Shown one piece after another: positions 41,619-64,000 of a DNA stretch of 64,000 nucleotides. Location of the stretch: assembly GCA_003255025.1 (NCBI GenBank), contig QANY01008723.1, positions 62,001-126,000 on the forward strand, read 5' to 3'. The stretch comes from Datisca glomerata (lineage: Eukaryota > Streptophyta > Magnoliopsida > Cucurbitales > Datiscaceae). The notes below the pieces were generated by a model. That model was not told where the DNA came from. It ran no database searches and saw only the letters and a list, made by a program, of their open reading frames with translations. The translations under genes were made by a program, and so were the position numbers. Numbering within the stretch: the stretch's first letter is position 1; every line of letters starts with the position of its first letter.

Positions 41619-43373
41619 ACTTTAATGTGCAATCGAGAACATCTCTAAAAATAACAAATGATTTCTTTGTCACGCAAAGATCAAGCACATGCTCTAACTT
41701 AAAGCACATTTTCACTTATGACAACTCTGATTGCAACATGGGCATTACAAAAACAAAAATCGTACAAATTCCATGATCTCTTGATGTTCTTAAAGATAAC
41801 AAAATAAAATATATTTTCTTCTCGTTCTTGAAGAACAAATGTAAAAAAAAAAATCAAATTTGAGCAGATCTAGATTTCATACTCTTCACAGAACACATTG
41901 TGATAAAAGAATATGAAAACTTGAGTAATGAACATCAGTGGGTTTTCAGTCTGGTCCTAACACACTTCTCATAATAGATTTGTCTTATAGTCAATCATCC
42001 ACGCGCATAAGGTAATATAAATCGTTAACGTCATGTGAGAGACCTATCATGATGAATCAAATTGTCACACACACGTCGTGGCGACTTTTCAAAACATTTC
42101 TCATAATATAGACTGATCTCATCATTATGATTATTTGGAAAGACAACAAGGGAAGCTAGCTTTTGTGTGGCTGATAGACAAACAGCATTCCACATTACCA
42201 ATGTCTAATGTCTTCTATACATATGAAAATGATGGTTGACGATCTCAAAAAGAGCCTACTTTCGTTTACTTATTATATATCACTGTAGAAAACGATAGAT
42301 AATCATTTAGACACTCACGCAGTCATATTCTTTTCAAAAACTATTTTTACTATTATTAAGTTTTTGGCTTTTACCTATGGAATTGAAAATACACTTTCTC
42401 CCGAAGTATTTGCTACATAAAAGTATTATAAGCATCCTCAACCCCATCAAAGAAATTTAATACCAAGGTCCAATATTAAAATTTAATTGAAAAATGTTGG
42501 GATGGAAAGAAACAACTACGATGAATTATTTTGTTTCTAGCTACTAAAAATAAAAAATAAAGTGTAATTTGCATATGTAAATATAAAATATATATCACAC
42601 AAACATTTATTAACATTCTCAAGTATTTGAAAGTATACTAAATATAATTTTTTTAATTCCCCAAGTATTTGCTTTATAATTATTATAAACACTATCAAAT
42701 ATCAATCACAAGAAAGAAACTTAGTAGCATGGTCATTAGTTTTTTTTAAGGAAAACTTCTTTAATATGAAAACGAAAAATCAGGGGTTTTTTGGTAAAAA
42801 GCCAGGGTAGACAACTATAATGAGTATTTGTTTTTGTCTACTAATAATTACAAAAAACAATGTAATATAGAATATGTGTAGATTGGTAGAGCAAACACGT
42901 GCCAACATAGATCGCTACAATTTGATGATATAAGGACCATTTTACCAAGCTGTCTATGCTAAAAAAAAAGCTTCTCTGTTTTAGGTTTTTGGCTTGATAC
43001 CATCAGTCATGCCAGCTTTTCTTGTCCTTCCGTATTCATGACAGTGATAGTAGTCCTCACTCTTCACTCTTTGATCAATTGCCATTTTTTCTTCGTTAAT
43101 TACAAATTTTAATCTTGATCAACTTCTGAAGTTGCGTAGTACTCTTAAACTTTAGAATGAGTCAATTTAATTAGTCTAACAACTTTATTGGTTCAAAAAT
43201 CAGTCGTCCACAACCTTGTCATCTAATACTTAATCACCGAGTTAAGAAAGATTACCACTAAAGAGTAACAAAATTTAAGTTACTCATCCCGACACAATTA
43301 ATCATTTACTAAATAATACTTGTGGTAATTTTTCTTAGTTGTGCGTTAAGTTTTGACGAACAAGGCTGTTGGC
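39844..43373 (+). repeat. Duplicated block, copy B
   Basis: Counterpart of 34155-37772. Here the CACTA element and copia LTR are complete on the left, so this copy shows the ancestral arrangement. The CACTA was already in the LTR before the duplication, because both copies share the same junction TTTCTTGTAGTG-TTAGC. Confidence 0.9.
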
Positions 43374-44915
43374 GGATAAAATTTGCGAATTACTTGACGC
43401 AGTACATAAAGATGTGCGGTTTATGGGACCAACTCAACGATCTCTAACGATGATTTCGGGTTTCGGGAAATTTCGACAGTATCAGGTTTTGTTAAAAAGG
43501 GTCTCAATTTCAATTGGAAATGTGTCAATGACAACAAATCACGAGCTATACTCGTGAACCCTCTGTTTTGGTCAAATTTCATTGCTCAGACCTCTGAAAA
43601 CGCGTTTTTGTTGTTTTAGGAAAATTTTGTTCCGTTAATAACATTAAGTGGAAAACTCAAATTTACATGCCGTTAGTGGCGTTGTGATCTTGATCATTAT
43701 CGGTTTATTATTATGCATTTATTTCAGATCTTGGAAAAAGTTATTACTTCAGTCATTTGGACGATTTAGGGTTTCATATTTGTATATACTTTGTAGCCCT
43801 AGGAACAATTTCTAGACTTGATTTAACAGACATTGAGAGTTTTATCTAACCATGTTCTTAGCTTTCGGAATTTGGGCGTGAATCAATGAATTTTGATGCA
43901 TGGATATTTAGTATTCATGCGCGAATCAAAGGCTATTAGAACATCATTTTTCATATTTCATACGAAATCTTTTTCATAAATATAAGTCGTTAGGGGCGTA
44001 TACATTGTATTCAAGGAAAGTTTCTTCAATGTCGGGGCTATTTTCCCTACATCGATATTGTAGGGTTCAATAAAATGTTAAAGAAGTTCAACAAATGTGT
44101 TCCGAAGTTCAACAAATCCCTAGATTTTTAATCTATATTTTTGTGCTAAGCTCCTGAGAGAAACTAAGATTGATTGTGTTCTTTTTTTTTATCAAACTCA
44201 AAAAATTCTCATCATTTAAAACAATGAAGAAACATACATCATAGAGGTTTTCTTTACAGGTTTTACCATTCCTGTTATCAGAATACGCACGAGTTATCTG
44301 TAAATCTATACCATTTTCATTTTGGTTAAGGATTTTTATAGACATTTCGTAAAAGAATTTCAATTCTCTCTTTCTTTATTATTTCTTCCCTTTTTCCCAT
44401 GCAAAGATCAAATCAATACTCACTCTCTCACTCTTCTTCTCCTCATTGTTTCCTATATGCTTTCTAGTTCGTTTCCTCCATACTTTCTTATTCAGCAAAG
44501 CAACGAATGTTTGTTTCCTCCATGCATTCCTGTTCAGCGAAGTTCTTCCTCTCAATCGCACTGGTTTTGACCATGACATAGTCGGTTAGGCTTCAATGGT
44601 GGGAATGGTCGAATGGGTACTTAACCAACTCAAATCTATTGGATCTGATCAAAATTCCAGAATAGGTACTTGATGGCACAAAGTGTCAGTGGCTGGAGAA
44701 AACTTGAGACTTGAGAAAACTTTTTTTTTTCGTTTGGATTTTGTGAATTCTTTTACACTTCTTTGGATTATAATTTTGTTGATTAGATATGTTTGTTGAT
44801 TGAAATTTAAATAATTATAAACCGATGAGGGGTTCAAGATTGATTATTATGTGGATGGTGTCAATTTCTGTATCTAGATGGGTCTCTGTATAAATCATTG
44901 CATGAAACAAAATGT
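43374..44915. other. Unassigned sequence between the duplicated block and the palindrome array
   Basis: No convincing gene. The frames here are short and low-complexity. The composition of 43374-44060, with scattered stops and CG-containing words, could be an old LTR, but no partner is seen. Confidence 0.4.
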
Positions 44916-45140
44916 CTACTTGAAGGGTTCAAGTAGTCATAAAACACTACTTGAACCCTTCAAGTATTTACATGCCTCTATATAAAGCCGACGACAACAT
45001 ATAATTAGACTACTTGAATGGTTCAAATAATCTTTTATTTTTACTAGTTGAAGGGTTCAAGTAGTCTATTTTTATCACTAAGTAGTCATTTTTGTCTCCT
45101 GCAGTGATTTATCCAGAGTGCATGTGACTTCTTTGAAGGA

Positions 45141-45422
45141 TTAAAGTAGTAAATAATCACTACTTGAAGGGTTTAAATAGTAACAATTTCTATGGCCTCT
45201 AAAAGTGCTTAAAACAGTGTTTGTGAACACGAAACTGGGTTGCGACGAGTAATCCCCGTCACATATGTAGATCTCTAAATAATATTCGATTTGATATTTT
45301 ACAGGACACGTGGTTCCACCCAAGTTAAAAGTTATGCCCATCCACGTGCCACGATCCGTTAGTTCTAGAAATTCTAAAGTTGCACCATTCACATCACTAC
45401 TTGAACCTTCAAATAGTGACAA
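45141..45422 (-). other. Open frame of 93 codons overlapping palindrome motifs, origin unknown
   Basis: A minus-strand frame whose start is made by a palindrome copy. The middle reads like a real peptide (RGTWMGITFNLGG) and could come from an older element, with palindromes at both ends. I do not recognise it and do not think it is a gene. Confidence 0.2.
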
Positions 45423-46823
45423 GCTTGCTAGACAACATATTTCAAGAGAAAAAATTACTTGAAAGGTTCAAGTAATATTTTATGACTACTTAAACCCTTT
45501 AAGTAATTTTTTTTGCCCGTCAACACTCGTATACCAGGTGACTACTTGAAGGGTTCAAGTAGTTGTTTATGACTAGTTGAACACTTCACGTAATTTTTTT
45601 TAATTCTAAAATCAAAATCACTACTTGAAGGGTTCAAATAATCAGATACAACTACTTGAATCATTCAAGTAATATTTTATTTTTACTTTCAGAATCAAAA
45701 TCATCACTTAAAGGATTCAAGTAGTAAGATACAACTACTTGAACCCTTCAAGTAATATATTTTTTTTTACTTTCAAAATCAAAATCATTACTTGAATGGT
45801 TCAAGTAGTCAGATACAACTACTTGAACTTTTCAAATAATATTTTTTTTACTTTCAGAATCAAAGTCACTAATTAAAGGGTTCAAGTACTCATGTACAAC
45901 TACTTGAACCCTTCAAGTAACAATTTTTTTACTTCTAGAATAAAAATCACTACTTGAAAGATCCAAGTAGTCAAATACAACAACTTGAACCCTACAAGTA
46001 ATATTTTTTTTACTTTCAGAATCAAAATCACTAGTAGAAGGGTTCACGTAGTCAGATACAACTACTTGAATACTTCAAGTAATATTTTTTTAAATTCAAG
46101 AATCAAAATAACTACTTAAAGTGTACATATAGTAAGATACAATTACTTGAACCCATCAAGTAATATATTTCTTTTACTTTCAGAATCAAAATCACTATTT
46201 GAACGATTCAAGTAATCAGATACAACTACTTAAACCCTTCAAGTAATGTTTTTTTTACTTCCCGAATCAAAATCACTACTTGAATGGTTCAAGAAGTCAA
46301 ATACAATTACTTGAACCCTTCACGTAATATTGTTTTTACGTCTAGAATCATAATCACCACTTGAAAGGTTCAAGTAGTTAGATACAACTACTTGAACCCT
46401 TCAAGTAATATTTTTGTTTTAACTTCAAGAATCAAAATCACTACTTGAAGTGTTCAAGTAATCATATATAAACTACTTGAACCCTTCAAGAAATATTTTT
46501 TTTAATTTTAGAATTAAAATCACTACCTGAAGGGTTCAAGTAGTCAGATACAACTATTTGAACCCTTCAAATAATATTTTTTTATTTAGGAAACAAAATT
46601 ACTACTGGAAGAGTTCAAGTAGTCAGATACAACTACTTGAACCCTTCGAGCAATATTTTTTTTATTTTCAGAATCAAAATCATTACTTGCAGGGTCAGTA
46701 GTCAAATACAACTACATGAACCCTTCAAGTAATATATATATTTTTTACTTGCAGAATCAAAATCACTACTTGAAGTGTTCAAGAAGTTAGATACAACTAT
46801 TTGAACCCTTCAAGTAATATTTT

Positions 46824-46824
46824 N
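46824..46824. other. Single undetermined base between two copies of a 233-bp block
   Basis: 46591-46823 and 46825-47058 are almost the same, and the N lies exactly between them. This is the pattern of two overlapping contig ends placed side by side instead of merged. Confidence 0.75.
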
Positions 46825-49800
46825 AAACAAAATTACTACTGGAAGAGTTTAAGTAGTCAGATACAACTACTTGAACCCTTCGAGCAATATTTTTTTTTTA
46901 CTTTCAGAATCAAAATCATTACTTGAAAGGTTCAAGTAGTCAAATACAACTACATGAACCCTTCAAGTAATATATATATTTTTTACTTGCAGAATCAAAA
47001 TCACTACTTGAAGTGTTCAAGAAGTTAGATACAACTATTTGAACCCTTCAAGTAATATTTTTTTTACTTTCAGAATTAAAATCCCGACTTGAAATGTTCA
47101 AGTAGTCAAAAACATCTACTTGAACCCCTCAAGTAATATTTTTTTTAGTTTCAGAATTAAAATCACTACTTGAAGGGTTCAGGTAGTCAGATACAACTAC
47201 TTGAACCCTTCCATTTATATTATTTTTATACTTTCAGAATCAAAATCACTATATCAAGGGTTCAAGTAGTCAGATACAACTACTTGAATCCTTCAAGTAA
47301 TATTTTTTTATTTTCAGAATTAGAATCAATACTTGAAGGGTTCAAGTAGTCAGATACAACTACTGAAACCTTCAAGTAATATATATTTTTTACTTTCAGA
47401 ATCAAAATCACTACTTGAAATGTTCAAGAAGTCAGATACAACTATTTGAACCCTTCAAGTAATATTTTTTTTACTTTCAGAATTAAAATCCCGACTTGAA
47501 ATTTTCAAGTAGTCAAAAACATCTACTTGAACCCCTCACGTAATATTTTTTTTAGTTCCAAAATCAAAATCAGTACTTGAATGGTTCAGGTAGTCAGATA
47601 CAACTACTTGAACCCTTCCATTTATATTATTTTTTTACTTTCAGAATCAAAATCACTATATCAAGGGTTCAAGTAGTCAGATACAACTACTTGAATCCTT
47701 CAAGTAATATTTTTTTATTTTCAGAATTAGAATCAATACTTGAAGGGTTCAAGTAGTCAGATACAACTACTCAAACCTTCAAGTAATATATATTTTTTAC
47801 TTTCAGAATCAAAATCACTACTTGAAGTATTCAAAAAGTCAGATACAACTATTTGAACCCTTCAAGTAATATTTTTTTTACTTTCAGAATTAAAATCCTG
47901 ACTTGAAATGTTCAAGTAGTCAAAAACATCTACTTGAACCCCTCACATAATATTTTTTTTAGTTCCAAAATTAAAATCACTACTTGAAGGGTTCAGGTAG
48001 TCAGATACAACTACTTGAACCCTTCCATTTATATTATTTTTTTACTTTCAGAATCAAAATCACTATATCAAGGGTTCAAGTAGTCAGATACAACTACTTG
48101 AATCCTTCAAGTAATATTTTTTTATTTTCAGAATTAGAATCAATACTTGAAGGGTTCAAGTAGTCAGATACAACTATTGAAACCTTCAAGTAATATATAT
48201 TTTTTACTTTCAGAATCAAAATCACTACTTGAAGGGTTCAAGTAGTCATATACAACTATTTGAATCCTTCAAATAATATTTTTTTACATCCATAATCAAA
48301 ATTACTACTTGAAGGGTTTCAGTAGTCAGATACAACTACTTGAACCCTTCAAGTAATATTTTTTTAATTTGAGAATATAAATCATTACTTGAGTGGTTCA
48401 ATTGATCAAATACAACTACTTTAACCCTTCAAGTGATATATTTTTTGTTTCAAGAATCAAAATCACCCCTTGAAGGGTTCAAGTGGTTAGATACGACTAT
48501 TTGAACCCTTCAAGTAATATTGTTTTATTTCCTTAATCAAAATCACTACTTGAAAGGTTTAAGTACTCAGATACAACTACTTGAACCCTTTAAGTAATAT
48601 TTTTTTTATTTTCAGAATCAAAATCACTACTTGAAGGGTTCAAGTAGTCAGATACAACTACTTGAACCCTTCAAGTAATATTTGTTTATTTCAAGAATCA
48701 AAATCACTACTTGAAGGATTCAATTAGTCAGATACAACTACTTGGACCTTCCAAGTAATATTTTTGTTTACTTCCAGAATTAAAATCACTCATTGAAGGG
48801 TTCAAGTAGTTAGATACAACTAATTGAATTTTTCAAGTAATATATTTTTTTACTTTCAGAATCAAAATACTACTTGAAGGGTTCAAGTAGTCAGATACAA
48901 CTACTTGAACCCTTCAAGTGATTTTTTTCCTAATTTTAGAAACAACATTACTACTTGAAGAGTTCAAGTAGTCAGATATAACTACTTTACCTTCAAGCAA
49001 TAGTGTTTTTTACTTCTAGAATCAAAATTACTACTTAAAGGGTTCAAGTAGTTAGAAATAACTACTTGAACCCTTCAAGTAATATTTTTATTTTACTTTC
49101 AGAATCAAAATTACTACTTTAAGTGTTCAAGTAATCAGATACAACTATTTGAACCCTTCAAGCAATATTTTGTTTTTACTTTTGGAATCGAAATCATTAC
49201 TTGAAGGGTTCAAGTAATCAAATACAACTACTTGAACCCTTCAAGTAATATTTTTTTACTTGCATAATCAAAATAACCACTTGAAGGGTTCAAGTAATCA
49301 GATACAACTACTTGAACCCTTCAAGTAATTTTTTTACTTTTAGAATCAAAATTATCACTTAAAGAGTTCAAGTAATCAAATACATCTACTTGAAACCTTC
49401 AAGTAATATATATTTTTTACTTTCAAAATAAAAATAACTACTTGAAGGGTTCAAGTAGTCAAATACAACAACTTGAACCCTTCAAGTAATATTTTTTTTA
49501 CTTCCAGAATCAAAGTCACTACTTGAAAGGTTCAAGTAATTAGATACAACTATTTGAACCCTTCAAGTAATATTTTTTTACTTCCAGATTCAAATTCACT
49601 TCTTGAAGGGTTCAAATAGTCAGATACAATTTCTTGAAGCCTTCAAGTAATTTATATATATTTTACTTTCAGAATCAAAATCACTACTTCAAGGGTTCAA
49701 GTAGTCATATACAACTACTTGAACCCTTCAAGTAATTTCTTTTACTTCTAAAATCAAATTCACTTCTTGATGGGTTCATGTAGTCAGATACAGTTACTTG

Positions 49801-52177
49801 AACCCTTCAAGTAATTTATATTTTTTACTTTCAGAAGCTGTATCACTACTTGAAGGGTTCAAGTAGTCAGATACCACTACTTGAACAAAATCATCATAGT
49901 GACAATTTATGAACAAAGTAACTCAAAATTAACACGTCTGTCAATGTTTTACTTGGGTCAACAGTCTAAACGCAATCCCTGCTCAATGGACCTTACCAAT
50001 ATGTAACTTATTAACGTCCCACTAACTATTCTTTGATTATTCAATGAATTTACAGTATATATAGTGATTTCTTTCTTAACCTTAATAGCTACATATTGAG
50101 TTCCTTTGAGTTAGCATGGATCATGAATAATAAGGGTTATAGTAATGGTTATAATCAATTCAAATTATGACATACATGGTCTCATGAACAATTACTGTTT
50201 AAATTAAAACATGAGAACTTACTGGTGAAGGAGCTTTACAGAACTCCTGATATATTTTCAACTTTATAAGTCTTCAAGAATTATATTTGCAGAAGTAAGA
50301 TGAAGTGTAAGAGAGAGAGAAAGAGCTTAGAGAGAAGATAGAGCATATTAATGATTTTTGCTCAGCACATGAGCGTTCTGCCATTAACAAATGGTGAGGC
50401 TCGCTTTTATATTACAAAAAGTAAAATATATAGGGAAAAGAAACATAACGTGGCGTGTTTTGAATGGGTTGGAGTCGTATATCCTTATCTTCTTGTTGCT
50501 TTCAGGAGGGAGAATCTACTTTCTGTAAAGTAGATTTGTCCTTTTTTGATAATGGGATCTACTTTATAAAAAGTAGATGTGTCATTTTATGTTAGTGGAT
50601 TTTTCGACTCTCTTGTTGTTTGTCATTGCTCGTGGTGGGAGACAACATTAGATTATCTTTTATCCCTTCTTGTCTTCTTCCATTTTTTCTGAGATTAGTG
50701 TGGTGAGTGAATCCCAGAATTCTTCAATGGTAGAATACTAAATGCATTGTCATCAGATCCTATTTGGCTTCTGATTGATTTATAGATATATCTTCAGGAA
50801 CAAAAACATGGAGAAACTGTTCCTTGATGTGATCCATAGTTTTACAAGTAATTATTTTTCGGATATATTATGAAATTTCTATTTTAACTCGATTTGAGTA
50901 TTGATGAATGGGTTTCAAGTTGGGGCAAGTAGAGCTTTTGGGATGACATCAAAACATGCTTGGGTATGGGTTTTGATAGCCTTAATTAATTTTGATAAAT
51001 GCAGGTTCATCCCTTTGTCCCACCATTTGGTGTAAAAAACTCTTTTGAGCCTTGGAATTTTGTTCTGGTAATCACATTGTAAATCCAATTTCCAAATCCA
51101 TGGGATGTAATATGCTATCTCTTCTCTCTAAGAAAGATAAGGTGGTGTGTCCTGGATGGGATAGAATCATATATCCTTATCTTCTCTTTGCTTTTTGGAG
51201 TTGGAATCTACTTTCTGAAAAGTAGATTTTTCCTTTTTTGATCATGGGATCTACTTTATAAAAAGTAGATGTGTCATTTTTTGTAAGTGGATTGTGCGAC
51301 TCTGCTGTTTTTTATCGTTGCTGGTAGTGGGAGACAAGATTAGATTTTCTTTTTTCCCTTCTTGTCTTCTTCCATTTTTTCCGAGATTAGTGTGGTGAGT
51401 GAATCCCAAGACTCTTCAATGGTAGGGTCAGATAATTCTGGATCTTCGCTTTCTCCAGCCAGAATACTAAATGCATTGTCATCAGATCCTGTTTGGCTGC
51501 TGATTGATTTTATGGATCCAACTTACGGCTAACTTACACGCATCACTTAAGTGAGGGAGCTGACCACTACATACGCAGTTAATCTAAAGAACAAAGTAAC
51601 CCAAAATGAGCAATCATTTCTCAACGGACCTTACCGATACGTGACTTTTTAACGTCCCACTAACTATTCATTGATTGTTCCCTGAATTATACAATGATTG
51701 CTTCATCAACCTTTATAGCTACATATTGAGTGATTTTGAGTCAACATGGATCATGAATACTAAAATTTATAGTAATGGTTATAATCAATTCAAATTATGG
51801 CATACATGGTCACATGAATAATTACTATTTAAAATAAAAGAGGAGAACTTACTAGTGAAGAAGCTTTACAGAGCTCCTGATATATCTTCAACTTTATAAG
51901 TCTTCAAGAATTATATTTGCAGAAGTAAGATGAAGTGTACGAGAGAGATAGCTTAGAGAGAGATGTTTGAGAGAAGAGAGAGCATATTATTTATTTTTGC
52001 TCAGCACGTGAGCGTTCTGCCGTCAACAAAGGGTGAGGCTCCCTTTTATAGTAAAAAAAGTAAAATATACAAGGAAAAGAAACATAACGTGGCGTGTTTT
52101 GAATTGGTTGGAGTCGTATATCCTTATCTTCTCGTTGCTTTTCAGAGTGGGAATCTACTTTCTGAAAAGTAGATTTG

Positions 52178-52513
52178 TCATTTTTTGATCATGGGATCTA
52201 CTTTATACAAACTAGATGTGTCATTTTCTGTTAGTGGATTGTGCGACTCTGTTGTTGTTTGTCGTTGCTGGTAGTGGGAGACCATATTAGATTTTCCTTT
52301 TTCCTTTCTTCTCTTCTTTAATTTTTCTGAGATTAGTGTAGTGAGTAAATCCCAGAAATCTTCAATGGTAGGGTCAGATAATTCTGGATCGTGGCTTTCT
52401 CCAGCCAGAATACTAAATGCATTGCCATCAGATCCTGTTTGGCTGCTGATTGATTTTATGGATATATCTTCAGGAACAAAGACATGGAGAAACTGTTCCT
52501 TGATGTGATCCAT
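52178..52513 (-). pseudogene. Tail of the pararetrovirus last ORF (inverted copy)
   Basis: An open frame of about 111 codons with an acidic part (SDPTIEDFWDLLTT) and a lysine/arginine-rich part near the end. It sits upstream of a promoter in viral orientation. The frame before it (52520-52790, with a VFYTKWWDK-type motif) is broken. The same sequence occurs at 53054-53239 and, as traces, at about 50.6-50.8 and 51.4 kb. Function is not known to me. Confidence 0.5.
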
Positions 52514-53053
52514 AGTTTTTACATGTAATTTTTTCCAGGTAGATTAGGAAATTTCTGTTTTAACTCGATTTGGTATTGATGAAAGGGTTTCCAAATGGGG
52601 CTGATAGAGCTTTTGGGATGGCATCAAACATGCTTGGAAATGGGTTTTGATAGCCTTAATTAATTCTGGTAAATGAGGGTTCCTCCCTTTGTCCCACCAT
52701 TTAGTGTAAAAAACTCTTTTGAGCCTTGGGATTTTGTTTTGGTAATCATAGTGTAAATCCCATTTCCAAATCCATGGAATGTAATATGCTCTCTCTTCTC
52801 TCTAAGAAAGATAAGGTAGCATGTCTTGGATGGGTTGGAGTCATATATCCTTATGTTCTCGTTGCTTTTTGGAGTGGGAATCTACTTTCTGAAAAGTAGA
52901 TTTGTCCTTTTTTTATCATGGGATCTACTTTATAAAAAGTAGATGTGTCATTTTCTGTTAGTGAGTTGTGCGACTCTGCTGTTGTTTGTCGTTGTCGGTA
53001 GTGGGAGACAATATTAGATTTTCTTTTTTCCCTTCTTGTATTTTTCATTTTTT

Positions 53054-53239
53054 CTAAGATTGTGTGGTGAGTGAATCCCAGAAATCTTCAACGGTAGGGT
53101 CAGATAATTCTGGATCCTGGCTTTCTCTGGCCAGAATACTAAATGCATTGTCATCAGATCCTGTTTGGTTGCTGATTGATTTTAGGGATATAGCTTTAGG
53201 AACAAAGACACGGAGAAACTGCTCCTTGATGTGATACAT
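53054..53239 (-). pseudogene. Second copy of the last-ORF tail (inverted)
   Basis: 61 codons closely similar to the copy at 52178-52513, stopped early by a frame change in the acidic part. Upstream in the minus direction (53240-53470) the KRVFYTKWWDK motif region is readable in pieces. Confidence 0.5.
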
Positions 53240-53502
53240 AGTTTTTACAAGTAATTCTTTTTTAGGTAGATTAGGAAATTTCTGTTTTAGCTTGATTTGA
53301 GTATTGATGAAATGGTTTCCAGTTGGGGACTGCTACTTTTGGGATGGCATCAAAACAAGCTTGGGTATGGGTTTTGATAGCCTTAATTAATTTTGGTAAA
53401 TGAGGGTTCATCCATTTGTCCCACCATTTAGTGTAAAAAACTCTTTTGAGCTTGGGATTTTGTTCTAGTAATTACATCATAAATCCCATTTCCAAATCCA
53501 TC

Positions 53503-54158
53503 AGAAGATAAGGATATACGACTCCAACCCATCCAGAACACGCCACCTTATCTTTCTTTTCCCTATATATTTTACTTTTTGTAATATAAAAGGGAGTCTC
53601 ACCCTTTATTGATGGCAGAACTCTCATGTGCTGACAAAAATCAATAATATGCTCTCTCTTCTCTTAAACATCTCTCTCTAAGCTCTCTCTCTCGTACACT
53701 TCATCTTACTTCCGCAAATATAAATCTTGAAGACTTATAAAGTTGAAGATATATTAGGAGCTCTATAAAGCTCCTTCACCAGTAATTTCTTCTCTTTTAA
53801 TTTAAACAGTAATTGTTCATGAGATCATGTATGCCATAATTTGAATTGATTATAACCATTAATATAACCTTTAGTTCATGATCCATACTAAATCAAAAGC
53901 ACCAATATGTAGCTATTTAGGTTGAGGAAGAAATCACTATATATACAGTAAATTCAGGGAACAATCAATGAATAGTTAGTGGGACATTAAAAAGTCACGT
54001 ATTGGTAAGGTCCGTTGAACATGGATTGAGTGAGGACTGTTGACCCAAGTAAAACGTTGACAGACATGCTAATTATGAGTTACTTTGTTCTTTGGATTAA
54101 CTGCGTATGCAGTGGTCAGCTCCTTCACATAAGAGATGCGTGTTGGTTAGCCGTAAGT
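53503..54158 (+). promoter_or_regulatory. Pararetrovirus promoter and leader, forward copy
   Basis: TATAAAAGGG at 53585-53594 is a strong TATA box. A CTCTCTCT-rich stretch at about 53650-53700 and a leader with several short frames follow. The leader leads to the primer site, as in Caulimoviridae pregenomic RNA. Activity cannot be judged. Confidence 0.65.
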
Positions 54159-54170
54159 TGGTATCAGAGC
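54159..54170 (+). other. tRNA-Met primer-binding site
   Basis: TGGTATCAGAGC is the exact complement of the plant initiator tRNA-Met 3' end. It is used by Caulimoviridae (and by many LTR elements) to prime minus-strand DNA. It lies 71 bp before the first ORF and no LTR is next to it, which supports a pararetrovirus. Confidence 0.85.
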
Positions 54171-54240
54171 TATGAATAGTTTTGGTTATAATAGTGTTTA
54201 TATTCTCTTTAAATTATTCATACATGATCACCATACAAAC

Positions 54241-55208
54241 ATGTCTGAATTAAGTTCTCCTTCTATCACAACCATAGCTAATACAGTAGCATCAACTTCA
54301 GAAGTTACTGAACTAATAGCCTATCAAGATATTAAAGAGGCTTTGGATAAATGGACCATACCTAAAGTTAAACCATTATTTACAAAATTGGTACTTTTGA
54401 TTTCACCAGTAGAAAGATAATAAAAACTTTTGAATATGCTATTCCTTTACGGAAAAATGATGATATAATTTATCTATTACATATTCATGATTTATAGCCT
54501 TTTATGCAAAAATATAAAGATTTGCATATAGGACTTGTGCAAATTACTTTCAAGCCCTTGACTTTATTAGGTCAGAAACACCAGCCTACAATGCATTCTT
54601 CGAGATAGTAGATGCCTAAACTAGAAAGCCTCACTTATGGGAGCTGTAGAGACCAATTTATCTCAAGGACCAGTTTATTTTAATATATATCCTAACTTGA
54701 GCGTTGCTCTTTCTGACAGTAATTTAGCCAAAGTTCTTGAACTTAGAGTTCAATCGTATTGCTATGACTACCTACCAGGATCATCTCCTTTTGCCATCTT
54801 ATTCAGGATTCACCTTAATGTCCTCTCCACCTTAAATCCTTACACCCACAAGCAGAGTGAGCAAGGACATACTGTCTGTATCGATACTAATCTCTTTAAC
54901 AGCCATGTAGCTATTCCTCGCATGATACCTTGGGTTGATATTACTTTTCCTTAAACATGGAAAATCTCTAATGCCATACCGACCAGACCTATTATTAGGC
55001 AATCTATTGAATATGTCATTCGAACCCAATGAGGTAATGTTTATCTTCCTTTTCAGAAACCCTTAACTAGAAGCAATTCTAGTATAAGCAACAGAAGTAT
55101 TCCTCCTTATAAAGTTGATCTTCCTGAATCTTCTAGAAAATCTATATCTGAACTTATAGGATCTAATGGATTTGATAATTCCTTCATCCTTGAAGATTAT
55201 ATCAAATG
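54241..55208 (+). pseudogene. Pararetrovirus movement protein relic (30K superfamily)
   Basis: It begins at ATG 54241. The frame shifts near 54390 and again before 54637, then is open to 54954 (GPVYFNIYPNLSV and the following beta-strand core), and continues to about 55208 with stops at 54954 and 55030. Layout and position after the primer site fit the cell-to-cell movement protein. It is inactive. Confidence 0.7.
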
Positions 55209-56345
55209 AATCCACATATCTGAAAACGAGATACCTCATGGTGTTTATGAATCAAATGCTAACAGAAGGCCAAATAGCCCAACTGCTAGTGATATGCAAT
55301 TTAATCTTTGATGGATTTTACACCTAAAAATCTATTAAGACAAAGTCTTCATGAGAATTTTATGCAACCGAAATATCAGAATTTTAGGAATTAGTATTTC
55401 TCTAACCATAATCTTCAACAACTCTTAGATCTTAAAAACTTGTATTATTACCAGTTAGAAAAAGATCAACGACTTCAGTCTTTTCCTGAATGATACTATC
55501 AGCTTACCTTACATGTCAAACTATATGATGACCAGCAGATACATGTTCTCTCCACTATTCAAAAAAATTGGATAACCACATAAGGTCGTACTTACCATTT
55601 TACCCATCCTCCACCTTTATCCTTAGAACTTGCTCCACGAATTGAAAATCAGAAACCTCTAGTCATAAATCCTTATACTGAGGTCCTTGAGAAAGCTAGT
55701 CATCAAGAACAAGTTAGATTTAAGGATATTCTCTCTTTAACCAAACATAATAATTATACCATTTTTTTCCTTCAAACTGTAAGAACCCAGTTAACCCGTA
55801 TTGAAGACCACATTGAACAAATACAGGAAACCAAGAATCAATAAAATCCTGTTGATCAGGATAAGATTACCCTTGAACCGGTCACTATAAAACCCCCACT
55901 TGAAGTTCAGAAATTTAAATTAAAATCTACCAAGAATGAGGATGATTTTATGGAAACTCGTATTAGAAAAATAGACCTTAAGATTTTCACTCCAGAAACT
56001 TCTAGACAATTGAATATGATGAATCAGGATGATACACCCCATCATGAAGAACCCGAAGAATTCTCTATTTCCCAAATATTGGATATTTAGAAGAACTTTG
56101 ATGATACTATCAATAAACTCTCCCATTCCTATTCCAAACGACCTACTACTCGTATGGCTTTAACATGACCTACTAGATATTATTATCCTAGACCTACCCC
56201 GCAGGACCTATTGTATGAAGAATATTTCCTTCATACTCAAAGATCTTATCATGGTAAAATCATTTATGAATGGAACATAGATGAAAAAATTGAATATCAA
56301 GTTTTTGAAACTACACTAGATGATCATGTGAGAAGTCTTCCATTG
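55209..56345 (+). pseudogene. Coat-protein precursor region, N-terminal part (relic)
   Basis: A broken frame with a Lys/Glu-rich and partly coiled-coil-like section (RTQLTRIEDHIEQIQE at about 55790-55830). It ends at about 56345, where foreign DNA begins. A copy of 55500-55870 is found at 60690-61075. Assignment to the coat region is by position before the zinc knuckle. Confidence 0.5.
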
Positions 56346-57565
56346 AATTGAATGGGGTGGGAAAGACAGGTTCGGAAATGGCCGGATTAGCAGGAGGAAG
56401 GGCGGCCCCACCTTGAAACAAAGTTGTACGTACATAAAGAAAGAGGCTGGTTATGGCCTTTACTTACTTGATAGGGCTCCTTCCCATCTATCTTGACCGG
56501 GAAGAGGGGGGAGGCCCTTGCGGAAGCCCTGCCCGCCATTCTCTATTTTTAGGGATCCCTCATATTTAGGATTTCAGGCTTCCCGGACTCGTAACAGATG
56601 GCTAGGAATAAGAAGAGGGTCGGTAGTCTCTGTCGTATTCTATTGATGAAGAGGTGACCTCGTGCTCTTCAAGAAATGAAGGCAAAGAAAGATTTTTTCC
56701 ATGTTTGGTCAGTACATCAGTGAAGCGCTTCCCGTTCTCTCTTTTTCATTCACATAATTCTTTTGCTAGTTGTTGTTAGAAACATAGGAGGGAGCTCTTC
56801 CTGTATTTAGGATTTTGTATATATAGGCATCCTTATTAAGTCCAAACTACACTAGAGTTCAAACTCAAATGATTCCACATGAAAGAGTACTTTCCTCTTA
56901 CTCGTATTGCAGGCAAATCCCGTTACTAGTAGTTCTGGTTAGCCCACTTGCCCCAGCACACTCTCAACTTGTAGATGCGCCAATCCAGCCTTCCCCCATG
57001 AGAAAAACCAAGAGACCACGAACACCATCACGCATGAAAATAGCCTTTTTGAAAGCATACCCAAGGCGCGAGCATCAATCCAATCTTCACTTATAGACAT
57101 CAAGAAGAAGATCTATTAACACGCACAGCTACCTATATAACAAGTTTCCTCTGACCTCTGTCTCACGACCGCAAATAGAACCTGTAGCTTCATGCCCTGA
57201 ACTGAACTACTACTGGCTTAGCTGCCTAGCTACTAAGAACTTGGCACCCGTCCTACCAATATAGTAGAAAGATTATAAGTAGGATTCCACTCAGGGCACA
57301 CTTGTTAACTACAGTTCCCATCTGTCTTGTAAAGAACTAGAACTCGAATTGCCCGCAGTTATGAGACTAGCTCCCTTGGCCGTAGCAACTATAGTTACTC
57401 TTGCTCCTAAGCTTTCAAATCCTTACTTCAGGCGATTAAGGTAGTGTTAGCTACTTACTTGTTAGAGTAGGACAAGGCCTTTACTCTATTCCTTCCTATT
57501 TCATATCATACTTGGGAACTACTATCTCTAAGTCCGGAATAGCGGCCTTGGTTCACCTCGGTTTG
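56346..57565. other. Foreign insertion of about 1.2 kb inside the coat-protein relic
   Basis: The sequence is clearly GC-richer than its surroundings, has no poly-A/T tracts and shows no coding frame. Words such as GGAAGAGGGGGGAGGCCC and long mixed-base stretches resemble plant mitochondrial intergenic DNA, so a nuclear-mitochondrial insert is possible. It is flanked on both sides by coat-protein sequence. No target duplication was found by eye. Confidence 0.45.
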
Positions 57566-58430
57566 CAAGCAGAATGACAATAGAGATGACCAAATCCGTA
57601 GATTCCTTGTTAATGGTTTTGCACTCTTAAAGGATGGTGGAATAATTGTCTCTCAGAAAGTTAGAGAAATTAGATTTTAAACTCCTTTAAGATCAAGACT
57701 GACCCCTTGACGGGTAACCAGACCAGAAATGAAGATGCTTGATATACGCTTGCTCAGTTTATAATTCATCATTTTCTTGGACCCGGAGTTAATAATACTG
57801 ACAAACATCAAGAATTATTACAAAATCTTAGATGTACTTCCTTAACCCATTTCCGTTGGTATAAAAATATCTTCCTCATGAAAGTCATGCAGAGAAGTGA
57901 TGTTAACAGTGAACATTGGAAGGTCAAGTTCATAGATGGTCTCCCTAGTCTATTTGCAGAAAAGGTTCATAAGAAACTTAGGGATAAACATGATCAGATG
58001 GATATTCTTTTATGACCAATACACTTATGGCCATTTTGTCGCCCTTGTCCCTGAAGAAGGATTAGGTATTTGCGATGACATGAAATTACATCATATGATG
58101 AAAAATCAAAATTTTAATAACAGAAACGAATTAGGTGAATTCTGTGACCAATTTGCCTATGATACAAAGATACAATATCCTTATACTTCTCAACCGCATA
58201 GGACTTCCAAGCCCTATAAGTCTCATAAAAAATATTTTCCTAAGAAGAAATCCAAATACAAAGATTCCCCTCAGAATCTTAATAAGAATTTTTTCTCCAG
58301 AAAACATAAATCTAAAGGCACCTGTTATAAGTGTAGATTACCCGGTCACTATGCAAATAAATGTCGATCCAAATTTAAGCAGAAGCTGAATGAGCTATCC
58401 TTTGATGGGGAGACCCAGCAAGAAACTTAA
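57566..58430 (+). pseudogene. Pararetrovirus coat protein, central and C-terminal part (relic)
   Basis: After the insert the coat core is readable with frame changes (a KGWW-type segment near 57633, RWYKNIF near 57857, WKVKFIDGLP near 57917). It then runs open from 57936 to 58430. It contains the zinc knuckle C-x2-C-x4-H-x4-C at about 58323-58363 and a strongly basic stretch before it, both usual for Caulimoviridae coat proteins. Confidence 0.75.
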
Positions 58431-58552
58431 ATTGTCTCTCTGAAGGAACTTCTACAGAAGATAGTACAAATGATGATTTTACTCAAATTTATGAATCTGA
58501 CTCTGACTCCTCTGCTACTTCTAAACAACATTGTTGCTATAAGTCATGCAAC

Positions 58553-58951
58553 ATGATAACTGAAGCCAACTATTGGAAAACCATATTTGAGATGAATTGT
58601 CTTGATATGAATAGACCAAGTATCAATTTCCTAACTGACACCCAACGATCTATTCTCGCTACTGCATACCAGATTATTGACCTTGAAATGAAGTTAAAGT
58701 TCTTAGATACCTTCTATAACGCTTATAGCACTTTTGAGGTCATTCCCATTGAGAATTACACTATGAAAGAGATTTTGACTTGTATCCAACATGACTTTTT
58801 ACCCGCTAAACCTGTTACCATTACAGATCTCAAAATGGAGATTAATACCATTAAGTCTGTAATTCAGCAGCTAAAACTGCAAATCAAATCATTTTCTAGG
58901 ATCTTTATTTCCTCAAACAGTCCACCACTACCAAAGGTAAGACTCATTTAG
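58553..58951 (+). pseudogene. Coiled-coil region between coat and protease, copy 1
   Basis: 132 open codons ending in a heptad-like helix (DLKMEINTIKSVIQQL). A near-identical copy lies at 61756-62166. Position fits a spacer or assembly region of the polyprotein. Function is unknown to me. Confidence 0.5.
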
Positions 58952-59039
58952 AGGAACCTGAGACTTCTTCACCCCCGCGAATATTGTTACAGAAACCACG
59001 ACTAAGGATGATAATCCTTATTTATTTCTTCTGAACCAT

Positions 59040-59540
59040 GTTACTTTCCAGAAGTGGTATACTAAAATTACTTTAGTTATCAAACCAGATTTCACAATTA
59101 AAGATGTCATTGTCTTAATTGATAGTGGTGCTGATATGAACTGCATTCATAAAGGATGAACTATTATGAAATATTTTCAGAAAACCATTCAATCTCTTAC
59201 TAGTGCTAGTGGTAACTCTATGCGTATTTGGAATAAAGTACCTGAAGCACTTATTTATAAAAAATGTATTTTTTATCTGCATCATTTGTTTTAATGGAAA
59301 ACATGACACAAAACATAATTCTAGGTAATCCTTTTTTAAATTCTATTATGCCTATTACAGGAATTGATACTCCAAGTCTCCATAGCACTATAGACAATAT
59401 TAATATTATATTTGAATTTGTTACAAAATCCTATACTAAAGAATTAGATTTGATAAAACATCTAATTCAAAATGAAAATAACCAGTTGAATTTTATACAG
59501 AAAGAAATTCAATTTCTTACTATGGATCAACGTATATAGC
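59040..59540 (+). pseudogene. Pararetrovirus aspartic protease, copy 1
   Basis: The catalytic triplet Asp-Ser-Gly is coded at 59121-59129 with the usual hydrophobic residues before it. A stop (TGA near 59158) and a frame change near 59260 break the domain. The second part (59264-59539) includes the ILGNPFL segment. Confidence 0.75.
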
Positions 59541-59572
59541 AAACTACCCTATAGAATAAGATAAAAACAATT

Positions 59573-60690
59573 ATGTATGAGTTTGAAACAGAGATTTGTA
59601 GTGACATCCCGAATGCTTTTTGGAATAGAAAGAAACATATCATATATCTACCTTATAATCAAGAATTTGATGAAAGAAATCTTCCTACCAAATATAGACC
59701 CAGCCAAATTAAAAAAGAATATTTAGAAATATGTAAAACTGAAATTGAATCCCTTTTATAGAAAATATTAATTAGACCCAGTAAATCTCCTTGGAGTTGT
59801 ACTGCTTTCTATGTTAATAAAAATGTTGAAATGGAAAGAGGATCACCTAGGTTAGTGATCAATTATAAACCTCTTAATGATGCTTTACAATGGATAAGGT
59901 ATCCTATACCGAATAAGAAAGATCTTTTAGACCGACTTCATGATTCCATAGTCTTTTCTAAATTTGATTTAAAATATGAATTTTGGCAAATACAGATAGC
60001 TGAACAAGATAGATATAAAACTACTTTTACTGTACTATTTGGCCATTGCGAATGCAATGTCTTACCAGTCGGAGCTAAGAATGGTCATTCAGAATTCCAG
60101 CATATAATGAATGATGTATTCAATTCTTATACTGAATTTATTATTTATTATATTGATGATGTCTTAATAATTTCATCCTCTATAGACCAGCATATCAAAC
60201 ACTTGAATATTTTCAAACATGTTATTATCCGCAATGGTTTGGTTGTTTCTGCTACCAAAATGAAAATAATTCAAACTGCAGTAAGATTTTTTTGTCATAA
60301 TATTTCCAATGGAACTATTATTCCCATTTACCGTAGCATTGAATTTGCTTCTAAATTTTCAGATGGAATTAAAGGAAAAACTCAATTATAGAGATTTCTT
60401 GGTAGTCTTAATTATATAGAGACTTTTATCCACAGTTATCACATGATATTTCAATCCTCTACACTGGGGTAAAAAAGGATCATTCACCTTTGTCAATAGA
60501 ACATACGCTAGCAGTTTAAAAGATAAAAGAAAAAAAATCAAACATTTGTATTGTTTATCTTTACCGAATCCCCAATGGGAAAAGATTGTTGGAACTGACG
60601 CTTCTAATAAGGGATATGGTGGGATTCTTAAACAATTTATCTCAATAATCAGAAAGAAGAACTTTTAAGATTCACTTTTAGAGTTTTGAA
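59573..60690 (+). pseudogene. Pararetrovirus reverse transcriptase and RNase H, copy 1
   Basis: RT runs from about 59573 with a stop at 59759, then open at 59831-60391 with LVINYKPLN, FSKFDLK and the catalytic YIDDV (about 60149-60163). Changes from copy 2 include two lost RT-core residues (ECNV for EWNI; KYEFW for KYGFW) and a stop at 60389. The RNase H part (60400-60690) is in pieces; a GTDASNKGYGG start is seen near 60594. Confidence 0.8.
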
Positions 60691-61075
60691 ATGACCAACA
60701 TTAGCTTACATTTTAAACTACATGATGACCAACAAATACAGGTTTTCTCTACTATTTAAAAAAATTGGATAACCACAGGTGGTCGTACTTACTAGTCTAC
60801 CCATCCTCCACCTTTATCCTTAGAACTTGCTCTAGGGAATAGATATCAGAAACCTCTAGTCATAAATCCTTATACTGAGGTCCCTGTGAAAACTAGTCAT
60901 CAAGAAACAGTTAGAATTAAGGATATTCTCCCCTTAACCAGACATAATAATTATACCAATCTTTTTCTTCAAATCGTAGGAACCCAGTTAACCCGTATTG
61001 AAGACCACATTGAACAAATACAGGAAACCAAGAATCAACAAAATCCTATTGATAAGGATAAGATTACCCTTTAAT
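60690..61075 (+). repeat. Displaced copy of coat-protein N-region sequence
   Basis: It matches 55500-55870 with few differences and follows directly on RNase H sequence. This join is also seen at about 63826 in the second tandem copy, so it is older than the tandem duplication. Confidence 0.8.
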
Positions 61076-61560
61076 TGCCGAGGAGTAATCTTTCTAGATG
61101 ATTGAACTTTTTGGTTTAATTTGGTGACTTGGCTTTGTAGATGATTCAAGTCAGATTCTTTATTGTCTTCTAAAAAGAGAAGCATTTTTTGAATTAATTT
61201 TTTCTCCAATTTGGATTTTGGTTTCGTGGCCTTTGATTTATCATTTAAAGATGGTTCTTTTTTGGTTATGGATGGCTCTGGAATTGGATGTGAACCTATA
61301 GGCTCCGGAGCCATCACCCTCTCATTTGCAGACGTAGCGGAATCACTTCCCCTATTCCCACCGTCAGGCGCAGGAAGTCCTTTCATCACTAACCCGCCCC
61401 CAATGAGATGGGGAATTTTGAATCCCCTCTTTCTACTTTGAGGCCCTTCATCTTTCTGAATCGAGGCCCGGCCCGGCTCGCGTCGTTCCAACAACCGGAG
61501 ATTCAGATTTTGATAGATTTAGACTGGATGGTTTGATTTTTGGATCTGGGTGAATGAGCT
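61076..61560 (-). pseudogene. Inverted fragment of the pararetrovirus last ORF
   Basis: Open on the minus strand (part of 61494-60988). It shares KSKAT-PKSKLEKK and the KMLLxLEDN helix with the relic at 31633-31915, which fixes its orientation as reversed. The plus-strand GC-rich stretch 61290-61490 has no counterpart in the older relic. Confidence 0.65.
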
Positions 61561-61755
61561 ATCCTTTGATGGGGAGACCCAGCAAAAAACTTAAATTGTC
61601 TCTCTGAAGGCACTTCTACAGAAGATAGTACAAATGATGATTTTTCTCAAATTTATGAATCTGACTCTGACTCATCTGCTACTTCTGAACAATCTTGTTG
61701 CTCTAAGTCATGCAACATGATAACTTAAGCCAACTATTGGAAAACCATAGTTGAG

Positions 61756-62166
61756 ATGAATGGTCTTGATATGAATAGACCAAGTATCAATGTCCTAACT
61801 GACACCCAACGATCTATTCTAGCTACTGCATACCAGATTACTAACCTTGAAATGAAGTTAAAGTTCTTAAAAACCTACTATAACGCTTATAGCACTCTTG
61901 AGGTCATTCCCATTGAGAATTACAATATGAAAGAGATTTTGACTCGTATCCAACATGATTCTTTACCCGCTAAACCTGTTACCATTTTAGATCTCAAAAT
62001 GGAGATTAATACCATTAAGTCTGAAATTCAGCAGCTAAAAACTGCTAATCAAATCATTTTCCAGGATCTTTATTTCCTCAAACAGTGCACTACCAAAGGT
62101 AAGACTCATTTAGAGGAACCTAAGACTTCTTCACCCCCCGAATATTGTTACAGAAACCACGACTAA
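61756..62166 (+). pseudogene. Coiled-coil region between coat and protease, copy 2
   Basis: 136 open codons, near-identical to 58553-58951 but with a different reading-frame end. The upstream ATG of copy 1 is lost by a stop (TAA in place of the Glu codon near 61727). Confidence 0.5.
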
Positions 62167-62199
62167 GGATGATAATCCTTATTTATTTCTTCTGAACCA

Positions 62200-62700
62200 T
62201 GTTACTTTCCAGAAGTGGTATACTAAAATTACTTTAGTTATCAAACCAGATTTCACAATTAAAGATGTCATTGTCTTAATTGATAGTGGTGCTGATATGA
62301 ACTGCATTCATAAAGGATGAACTATTATGAAATATTTTCAGAAAACCATTCAATCTCTTACTAGTGCTAGTGGTAACTCTATGCGTATTTGGAATAAAGT
62401 ACCTGAAGCACTTATTTATAAAAAATGTATTTTTTATCTGCATCATTTGTTTTAATGGAAAACATGACACAAAACATAATTCTAGGTAATCCTTTTTTAA
62501 ATTCTATTATGCCTATTACAGGAATTGATACTCCAAGTCTCCATAGCACTATAGACAATATTAATATTATATTTGAATTTGTTACAAAATCCTATACTAA
62601 AGAATTAGATTTGATAAAACATCTAATTCAAAATGAAAATAACCAGTTGAATTTTATACAGAAAGAAATTCAATTTCTTACTATGGATCAACATATATAG
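62200..62700 (+). pseudogene. Pararetrovirus aspartic protease, copy 2
   Basis: Same layout as copy 1, with the Asp-Ser-Gly triplet at 62281-62289 and the same TGA after it. Because both copies share this stop, it arose before the tandem duplication. Confidence 0.75.
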
Positions 62701-62739
62701 CAAACAACCCTATAGAATAAGATAAAAACAATTATGTAG

Positions 62740-63830
62740 GAGTTTGAAACAGAGATTTGTAGTGACATCCCGAATGCTTTTTGGAATAGAAAGAAACATA
62801 TCATATATCTAATAATCAAGAATTTGATGAAAGAAATCTTCCTACGAAAGAATATTTAGAAATATGTAAAACTGAAATTGAATCCCTTTTACAGAAAATA
62901 TTAATTAGACCCAGTAAATCTCCTTGGAGTTGTACTACTTTCTATGTTAATAAAAATGTTGAAATGGAAAGAGGATCACCTAGGTTAGTGATCAATTATA
63001 AACCTCTTAATGATGCTTTACAATGGATAAGGTATCCTATACCAAATAAGAAAGATTTTTTAGACCGACTTCATGATTCCATAGTCTTTTCTAAATTTGA
63101 TTTAAAATATGGATTTTGGCAAATACAGATAGCTGAACAAGATAGATATAAAACTGCTTTTACTGTACCTTTTGGCCATTGCGAATGGAATATCTTACCA
63201 TTCGGAGTTAAGAATGGTCATTCAGAATTCCAGCATATAATGAATGATGTATTCAATTCTTATGCTGAATTTATTATTTGTTATATTGATGATGTCTTAA
63301 TAATTTCATCCTCTATAGACCAACATATCAAACACTTGAATATTTTCGAGCATGTTATTATCCGCAATGGTTTGGTTGTTTCTACTACCAAAATGAAAAT
63401 AATTCAAACCGCAGTAAGATATTTTGGTCATAATATTTCCAATGGAACTATCATTCCCATTGACCGTAGCATTGAATTTGCTTCAAAATTTTCAGATGAA
63501 ATTAAAGGAAAAACTCAATTACAGAGATTTTTTGGTAGTCTTAATTATATTAGAGACTTTTATCCACAGTTATCAGATGATATTTCAATCTTCTACACCA
63601 GGCTCAAAAAGAATCATTCACCTTTGTCAACAGAACATACACTAGCAGTTTAAAAGATAAAAGAAAAAAATCAAACATTTGTATTGTTTATCTTTACCGA
63701 ATCCCCAATGGGAAAAGATTGTTGAAACTGACGCTTCTAATAAGGGATATGGTGGGATTCTTAAATAATTTATTCCAATAATCAGAAAGAAGAATTCTTA
63801 AGATTCACTTTTAGAGTTTGGAAAGGACCA
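62740..63830 (+). pseudogene. Pararetrovirus reverse transcriptase and RNase H, copy 2 (best preserved)
   Basis: The RT core is open for 229 codons (62964-63653), with the usual motifs and YIDDV at about 63283. The N-terminal part (62740-62960) has deletions relative to copy 1 (near 62811 and 62846). RNase H after 63654 is broken by a stop at 63651 and a shift. It could give an RT-core fragment only. Confidence 0.8.
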
Positions 63831-64000
63831 GCATTAGCTTACATTTCAAACTACATGATGGCCAACAAATACAGGTTTTCTCTACTATTCAAAAAAATTG
63901 GATAACCACAAGTGGTCGTACTTACCAGTCTACCCATCCCTACATTTATCCTTAGAACTTGCTCCAGGGAATAGATATCAGAAACCTCTAGTCATAAATC

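What the first reader, a model, noticed from the sequence alone, without database searches (positions are those of the whole stretch)
44916..49886. Satellite array whose unit is a palindrome followed by its own reverse complement
Each unit of about 80 bp contains two 21-nt palindromes that are reverse complements of each other, 10 nt apart. One unit can therefore form a 21-bp hairpin or two 9-bp hairpins, on either strand, and every unit can pair with every other. Repeated about 55 times, this gives 5 kb of potential cruciform DNA or, if transcribed, a multi-hairpin RNA whose arm length equals that of plant 21-nt small RNAs. I know no named repeat family with this design. The structure is seen directly; any RNA, chromatin or recombination role is inference.
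Basis: partly seen in the sequence, partly recalled or inferred. Interest (0 to 1): 0.88.

Follow-up and report, generated by a model that had tools for sequence, protein, structure and literature searches.

The report
Transposon packed with paired palindromic motifs
This 5-kb array is not a free-standing satellite: it is a block of paired mirror-image DNA motifs inside a damaged copy of a jumping gene scattered through this plant's genome, and the motifs likely serve as landing sites for a protein made by full-length relatives of that jumping gene.

Summary
The array is real. Its 81-bp unit holds two 21-nt near-palindromes (9-bp arms, GGG or CCC centre) 10 nt apart. It belongs to a dispersed DNA-transposon family: the exact 21-mer occurs 5,568 times in the 678-Mb host genome, against 0 for the reversed control. 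Sampled copies have related terminal inverted repeats and 9-bp target-site duplications (10 of 13 elements within 1 mismatch; cross-paired controls 3 of 156). That fits a non-autonomous Mutator-like (MULE), foldback-type element. The window copy starts at 44,293; no right end was found, and pararetroviral sequence begins 25 bp past the array.

A function for the hairpin is not supported: in 396 motif pairs the 21-bp hairpin shows no excess of compensatory change. What persists beside unlike spacers and linkers is the palindrome and the 31-nt pair spacing, so I read the array as likely clustered protein-binding sites. The binding protein is unknown. One locus joins an element end and three palindromes to a MULE transposase gene, but 39 of 39 other scored copies of that gene region lack them. 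At one other locus, C8, two arrays flank a DUF1985 (VANC-type domain) gene. New variant of a known kind.

The parts
44293..49886 (+). Truncated non-autonomous Mutator-like element that contains the array; its right end was not found
   Evidence: Left end matches the family terminal repeat with score 60, next site in the window 41; no end or motif in the following 9.9 kb of contig
44293..44328 (+). Left terminal inverted repeat (delta type, GTTATCTGTAAATCTATACC...)
   Evidence: Alignment with ends of L020, L021, L028
44293..44915 (+). Delta end segment, non-array
   Evidence: 504 first-look candidates in the genome, 40 scored; the other scored copies are 82-89% identical in their main match
44916..45540 (+). 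Irregularly spaced palindrome pairs
   Evidence: Positions; pairs 31-34 nt apart with unrelated spacers between
45182..45396 (+). Remnant of the family's non-repeat core
   Evidence: Shared with up to 9 other fetched loci
45542..49886 (+). Regular 81-bp array of palindrome pairs
47085..48305 (+). Three 407-bp higher-order blocks, 95-97% identical
46824..46824 (.). Assembly gap (one N) with 95% duplicated flanks 46587-46823 and 46825-47061
49911..64000 (.). Pararetrovirus-like (caulimovirid, by recall) blocks that begin 25 bp after the array; not part of the element
   Evidence: 49,911-50,493 matches 54,090-53,503 inverted; reverse transcriptase PF00078 at 62,790-63,653

Best explanation
The array is the repeat block of a truncated, non-autonomous Mutator-like transposon, and its paired palindromes likely act as clustered docking sites for a DNA-binding protein, probably the transposase, that full-length relatives would encode. 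Shown: a dispersed family, related terminal inverted repeats, 9-bp target duplications, arrays inside those ends, and the same palindrome with the same 31-nt pair spacing beside different spacers and linkers. Inferred: each 9-bp arm is a half-site of a dimer; two dimers sit about three helical turns apart on one face of the DNA; many pairs let a protein with a short recognition sequence single out its own element. Also inferred: units multiply by unequal exchange or slippage inside the element until it looks like a satellite. Not found: the protein.
For: Unit dispersed, 266 matches from 40 scored of 703 candidates; 5,568 exact 21-mers, control 0. 9-bp duplications: 5 of 13 exact and 10 of 13 within 1 mismatch, controls 0 and 3 of 156; C95:27,578-32,645 is a complete element with an exact 9-bp duplication. 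End segments on both sides of the arrays in 13 of 20 fetched loci and on at least one side in 19 of 20. Same arm consensus beside canonical (716) and other (268) spacers. Pair spacing exactly 31 nt for 304 of 321 canonical-like and 83 of 128 other linkers. No covariation of the long hairpin. Precedent: Galileo transposase binds repeats in its long TIRs (PMC3688188, passages); VANC proteins bind tandem motifs in VANDAL elements (PMC5735166, passages).
Against: No protein shown to bind. The one transposase gene joined to an end with palindromes (C448) is not the family's usual partner: in 39 of 39 other scored copies similarity begins only after the motif. Arm substitution rates (A/T about 0.04, C/G about 0.15 per site) are close to those of core and ends (A/T 0.04-0.06, non-CG C/G 0.13-0.26), so post-insertion selection on the motif is not shown, and arms were picked by similarity. 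The 20 loci were picked from best hits. Arrays of about 100 sites exceed what transposase binding should need.
Confidence: 0.5

Rival explanations
1. The array is a passive minisatellite inside the transposon: slippage and unequal exchange amplified a few palindromes, which now do nothing.
For: 407-bp blocks 95-97% alike show recent local amplification. Arms decay at rates like the rest of the element. Array size varies widely between copies, 34-82% of element length in 14 measured elements.
Against: The same palindrome and the 31-nt pair spacing recur beside unrelated spacers and linkers, which plain duplication of one unit does not explain.
Confidence: 0.33
2. The sites bind a VANC-like DUF1985 anti-silencing protein rather than the transposase, so the array keeps copies from being methylated.
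For: At C8 arrays at L035:593-965 and 6048-6483 flank DUF1985 exons: one 44.6 bits, over the 35.1 cut-off; one 34.4 bits, just under it. VANC proteins carry DUF1985 and bind tandem motifs (PMC5735166). At C17 an array lies 2.5 kb from a DUF1985 exon.
Against: C8 is a single locus that I picked because two arrays lay 5 kb apart; no element ends were found there or at C17. The MULE lineage that is often paired with DUF1985 (9 of 40 places) was not shown to carry the motif. VANC21 motifs are short and point the same way, not palindromic pairs.
Confidence: 0.12
3. One reading: the unit works through its hairpin, as cruciform DNA or as hairpin RNA feeding 21-nt small RNAs.
For: Strong predicted folding: RNA -34.2 kcal/mol, z -8.4; DNA unit z -5.0. 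Mild pooled excess of compensatory changes when the outermost base is counted, 132 against 103+-8, and within palindrome B, 17 against 9.9 (27 of 2,000 shuffles reach it).
Against: The 21-bp hairpin shows no excess: arms 20 against 21.9+-4.0, centres 16 against 16.8+-3.7; within A 10 against 10.6.
Confidence: 0.07
4. A satellite that is independent of the transposon and was merely captured by it.
For: Satellite arrays captured by CACTA elements are known (PMC8978399, passages).
Against: Family end segments on at least one side in 19 of 20 fetched loci, and on both sides in 13. The loci were not a random sample.
Confidence: 0.04

Closest known systems
Mutator/foldback elements: Tm1 of root-knot nematodes (PMC3169594) and Tetris of Drosophila virilis (PMC4079207); passages of both seen
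   Same: 9-bp (Tm1) or 8-10-bp (Tetris) target duplications, internal tandem repeats of variable number inside the ends, mostly non-autonomous copies; in Tetris the repeats grow into satellite-like arrays
   Different: Tm1 repeats are about 14 bp and Tetris repeats about 220 bp; the passages seen describe no inverted palindrome pairs at fixed spacing. Here repeats can fill up to 84% of the element
VANDAL MULEs of Arabidopsis with VANC proteins (PMC5735166, PMC10398659; passages seen)
   Same: Plant MULEs with tandem repeats of a short motif in non-coding parts, expanding and contracting
   Different: VANC21 motif YAGTATTAY is 9 nt, arrayed in one orientation, and VANDALs have degenerate ends; here palindromic pairs and recognisable TIRs. 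No VANC-like partner proven
Galileo (P-superfamily foldback-like transposon; PMC3688188, passages seen)
   Same: Long, internally repetitive ends with several transposase binding sites
   Different: P superfamily, in Drosophila; three binding sites per end reported, not dozens of palindromes
CACTA elements with subterminal repeats, such as soybean TgmR (PMC4219821, passages seen)
   Same: Direct and inverted subterminal motifs able to form stem-loops, with putative TNPA-like binding sites
   Different: CACTA ends and 3-bp target duplication, not found here; a true CACTA element lies 3.4 kb to the left in the window

Membership tests
Mutator-like elements (MULE) | 8-11-bp target duplication (PMC6446971) | tested here: met
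   9 bp: 10 of 13 within 1 mismatch against 3 of 156 controls; C95 exact. Not testable for the window copy itself, whose right end is missing
Mutator-like elements (MULE) | Terminal inverted repeats | tested here: met
   Related ends GGGTTATTTG.../GGGTTTTTAGG... on opposite strands
Mutator-like elements (MULE) | MULE transposase in autonomous members | tested here: inconclusive
   C448 joins a beta end and three palindromes to degenerate PF03108/PF10551/SWIM exons, but 39 of 39 other scored copies of that gene region lack them
Foldback-type elements | Long inverted ends made of tandem repeats | tested here: met
   L017 and L022 have head-to-head arrays between two gamma ends; other elements run one way, so met by part of the family
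VANDAL/VANC system | DUF1985 (VANC-type) gene in the element and motif bound by its product | tested here: inconclusive
   DUF1985 exons between two arrays at C8 only; binding not testable
CACTA | CACTA ends with 3-bp target duplication | tested here: not met
   Window scan found only the element at 38,843-41,471; family ends and 9-bp duplications differ
Hairpin/small-RNA precursor | Compensatory changes that keep the hairpin | tested here: not met
   20 against 21.9 expected in 396 pairs
Hairpin/small-RNA precursor | 21-nt small RNAs from the array | not testable with these tools
   No read data

The most novel reading that the evidence does not exclude
A plant transposon outside the mustard family runs its own anti-silencing system: a DUF1985 (VANC-like) protein binds inverted palindrome pairs phased at three helical turns, and the family has seeded an estimated 60,000 such sites at about 1,400 loci, each array a platform whose number of sites sets how well that copy escapes methylation. 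(Estimates: 5,568 exact copies over 92 exact of 997 sampled palindromes, median 42 per locus. The probability was lowered from 0.22.)
Probability: 0.12. Interest if true: 0.75.

Novelty: new variant of a known kind. Interest (0 to 1): 0.47.

Why it matters
It turns an odd 'satellite' into a dispersed transposon family with thousands of copies of one palindrome at fixed pair spacing. If a family protein binds these pairs, it would be a further case of a transposon multiplying its own recognition sites, and it would make testable why foldback-type elements build tandem repeats at all. It also warns that palindromic arrays in plant genomes should be checked for transposon ends before hairpin or small-RNA roles are proposed.

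Tried and rejected
CACTA reading: my first idea, from the CACTACTTGAA letters and the neighbouring CACTA element; dropped once the ends and 9-bp duplications were found. MULE transposase of C448 as the family's own: promising at first, then contradicted by C570 and by 39 of 39 other scored copies. Compensatory change: suspected by eye, then tested; absent for the long hairpin, weak inside palindrome B. C-to-T decay special to the array: no, it is found in core and ends too. Rfam at gathering thresholds: nothing. The 19-mer core outside this genome: none in viral contigs, one isolated match in a Pseudomonas MAG that I take as chance. The transposase at C95:39,849 as partner of the C95 array: the element ends at 32,645. 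Right end beyond the pararetroviral block: no motif, end or matching duplication in the next 9.9 kb. Ends at C8 and C17: none found. Transposase N-termini of C17 and C448: weak similarity, E 0.002, no Pfam match.
Full report
OBSERVATION. The array is as described. TRF finds 53.5 copies of 81 bp at 45,541-49,886, and the motif is far above chance (184 matches against at most 1 in 100 shuffles), all inside 44,917-49,865. The 21-mers are 9-bp arms around GGG (A) or CCC (B). A and B are near reverse complements 31 nt apart, start to start, so a pair is a 52-nt inverted repeat. Left of 45,540 the pairs are irregular. An N at 46,824 has 95% duplicated flanks and three 407-bp blocks are 95-97% alike, so the exact number of units is uncertain.

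HOST. The window is contig C835:62,001-126,000 of an unnamed 678-Mb genome. Its DNA ligase 6 gene matches flowering plants, 54-62% identity in the top 20 rows, among the named ones Corylus, Cucumis and Prunus. A eudicot, perhaps a rosid (inference).

WHAT IT IS. The unit is dispersed: 266 matches from 40 scored of 703 candidates. The exact 21-mer occurs 5,568 times against 0 for the reversed pattern. I fetched 20 loci of 9.9 kb, chosen from the best hits and not at random (L010-L029). They show arrays bounded by conserved segments that I call alpha, beta, gamma and delta, which begin with related terminal inverted repeats. Both ends were given a place in 13 of 20 loci. The best 9-mers beside them agree exactly in 5 of 13 and within one mismatch in 10 of 13; one more has two mismatches and two have three, and in those last two (L018, L027) one end was poorly located. 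Of 156 cross-paired controls none agree exactly and 3 within one mismatch. Of the other seven loci, six have one end and L012 none. C95:27,578-32,645, found separately, is a complete 5,068-bp element with an exact 9-bp duplication and about 100 palindromes, the best whole counterpart of the window array. The 9-bp duplication and TIRs fit Mutator-like elements (8-11 bp, PMC6446971, passages); other superfamilies with similar duplications are not excluded by this alone. The 3-bp duplication of CACTA elements is not seen. The window copy has the delta end at 44,293 (score 60; next site in the window 41), the delta segment to 44,915, a core remnant (45,182-45,396) and the array, but no right end in the window or the next 9.9 kb. 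Pararetrovirus-like sequence starts at 49,911.

ANATOMY OF THE FAMILY. Fourteen measured elements are 1.8-5.4 kb, with arrays making up 34-82%; in the remaining part of the window copy it is 84%. Some have arrays on both sides of a core of about 365 bp (L019, L024). L017 and L022 are head-to-head (foldback) with gamma ends on both sides. Others run one way (C95, window). First-look candidates number 1,440 for the beta end and 504 for the delta end, 40 scored each. From 92 exact of 997 sampled palindromes I estimate about 60,000 palindromes at about 1,400 loci; the sample is not random.

SEQUENCE OR STRUCTURE? If the 21-bp hairpin mattered, changes in A should be matched in B. In 396 pairs (356 distinct) they are not: 20 compensatory cells against 21.9+-4.0 expected for arms, 16 against 16.8+-3.7 for centres. 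Within A 10 against 10.6; within B 17 against 9.9, reached by 27 of 2,000 shuffles. A pooled count including the outermost base gave a mild excess, 132 against 103+-8. Predicted folding is strong, as expected of an inverted repeat. What stays constant is the arm sequence beside unlike spacers (716 palindromes by canonical and 268 by other spacers, same arm consensus) and the 31-nt spacing with unlike linkers (83 of 128; 304 of 321 for canonical-like linkers). Thirty-one bp is close to three turns of B-DNA (textbook value), which would put the two sites on one face. Against a strong claim of selection: arm substitution rates (A/T about 0.04, C/G about 0.15 per site) are close to those of core, beta and delta segments (A/T 0.04-0.06; non-CG C/G 0.13-0.26), and the arms were picked by similarity. 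C-to-T changes dominate in all parts, as expected of a long-methylated transposon (inference).

LINK TO PROTEINS. C448 has a beta end, three palindromes (one 31-nt pair), then degenerate MULE transposase exons: PF03108 E 2.5e-9, PF10551 E 5.6e-22, SWIM E 2e-5. One exon of that gene has 160 first-look candidates; the 39 scored besides itself are 90-94% identical. Of the 40 places, 9 have a DUF1985 hit 2.2-3.3 kb downstream in convergent orientation, counted by eye against the 150 listed of 2,290 DUF1985 candidates. But this lineage is not shown to carry the motif. At C570 neither beta end nor motif lies in the 615 bp before the shared part; in C448 the beta homology stops inside a palindrome, where the transposase leader begins. 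A search with the whole C448 stretch from beta end to transposase found 39 further scored places, and in 39 of 39 similarity starts only after the palindromes (query positions 389 or later of 1,192). So the C448 junction is a recombined or nested arrangement, and the family's autonomous partner is unknown. At C8 arrays at L035:593-965 and 6,048-6,483 flank two DUF1985 exons, one above and one just below the Pfam cut-off; DUF1985 is a domain of VANC proteins (PMC5735166, figure legend). That is one locus, without element ends found. At C17 an array lies 2.5 kb from a DUF1985 exon.

MECHANISM. I commit to clustered protein-binding sites used by an element-encoded protein, probably the transposase. 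Galileo transposase binds repeats in its long TIRs (PMC3688188). VANC proteins bind tandem motifs in non-coding VANDAL regions, with motif density important, and RNA-directed methylation targets the same regions (PMC5735166, PMC10398659). Growth of such repeats into satellite-like arrays inside a foldback element is known from Tetris (PMC4079207); Tm1 is a Mutator/foldback family with tandem repeats in its ends (PMC3169594). Binding, dimer symmetry, helical phasing and any escape from silencing are inferred. A passive minisatellite remains a serious rival.

NOVELTY. A full-text search for three motif strings found 0 papers; no repeat library was available, so the family may be listed in one. 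The kind (MULE/foldback with internal tandem repeats) is known; inverted palindrome pairs at fixed spacing are a variant that I did not meet in the passages read.

Noticed in passing
window 38843-41471: Complete CACTA element (TIR CACTACAAGAAAC, TSD TTA) with palindromic TTTCGCGACC subterminal repeats; a 3.6-kb stretch that includes its right part is duplicated (34,154-37,772 and 39,843-43,373, 95.4%), ending at an N at 37,773.
   Followed up: partly
window 24098-24390: Another tandem repeat of 81 bp (3.6 copies) whose unit also holds two inverted-repeat motifs (TCTAAGTG...CACTTAGA and GTCTAAG...CTTAGAC), in a region with a retrotransposon reverse transcriptase fragment at 21,040-21,417.
   Followed up: no
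window 49911-64000: Rearranged pararetrovirus-like blocks with inverted copies of one region (49,911-50,493 against 54,090-53,503) and two reverse-transcriptase regions about 95% alike (58,387-60,868 and 61,551-64,000).
   Followed up: partly
genome contigs C570, C835, C372, C1319, C278, C1008, C926, C360, C625: A MULE transposase gene with a DUF1985 (VANC-type domain) gene 2.2-3.3 kb downstream in convergent orientation at 9 of 40 scored places: a VANDAL-like layout in a non-Brassicaceae-looking plant, apparently without the palindromes.
   Followed up: partly
canonical 10-nt linker of the 81-bp unit: On one strand the linker junction reads AGTTGTAT, 7 of 8 letters of the published VANC6 AC-type motif AGTTGTAC; probably chance, since the listed other linkers do not show it.
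   Followed up: no
L014 (C467:753700-763600): The host sequence just outside both ends of this element shares AAACTAGAATCAAT as an inverted repeat, and the element holds two cores: a possible nested or dimeric insertion.
   Followed up: no
window 46824: Single N inside the array with 95% duplicated flanks, probably two contig ends that overlap and were not merged.
   Followed up: partly
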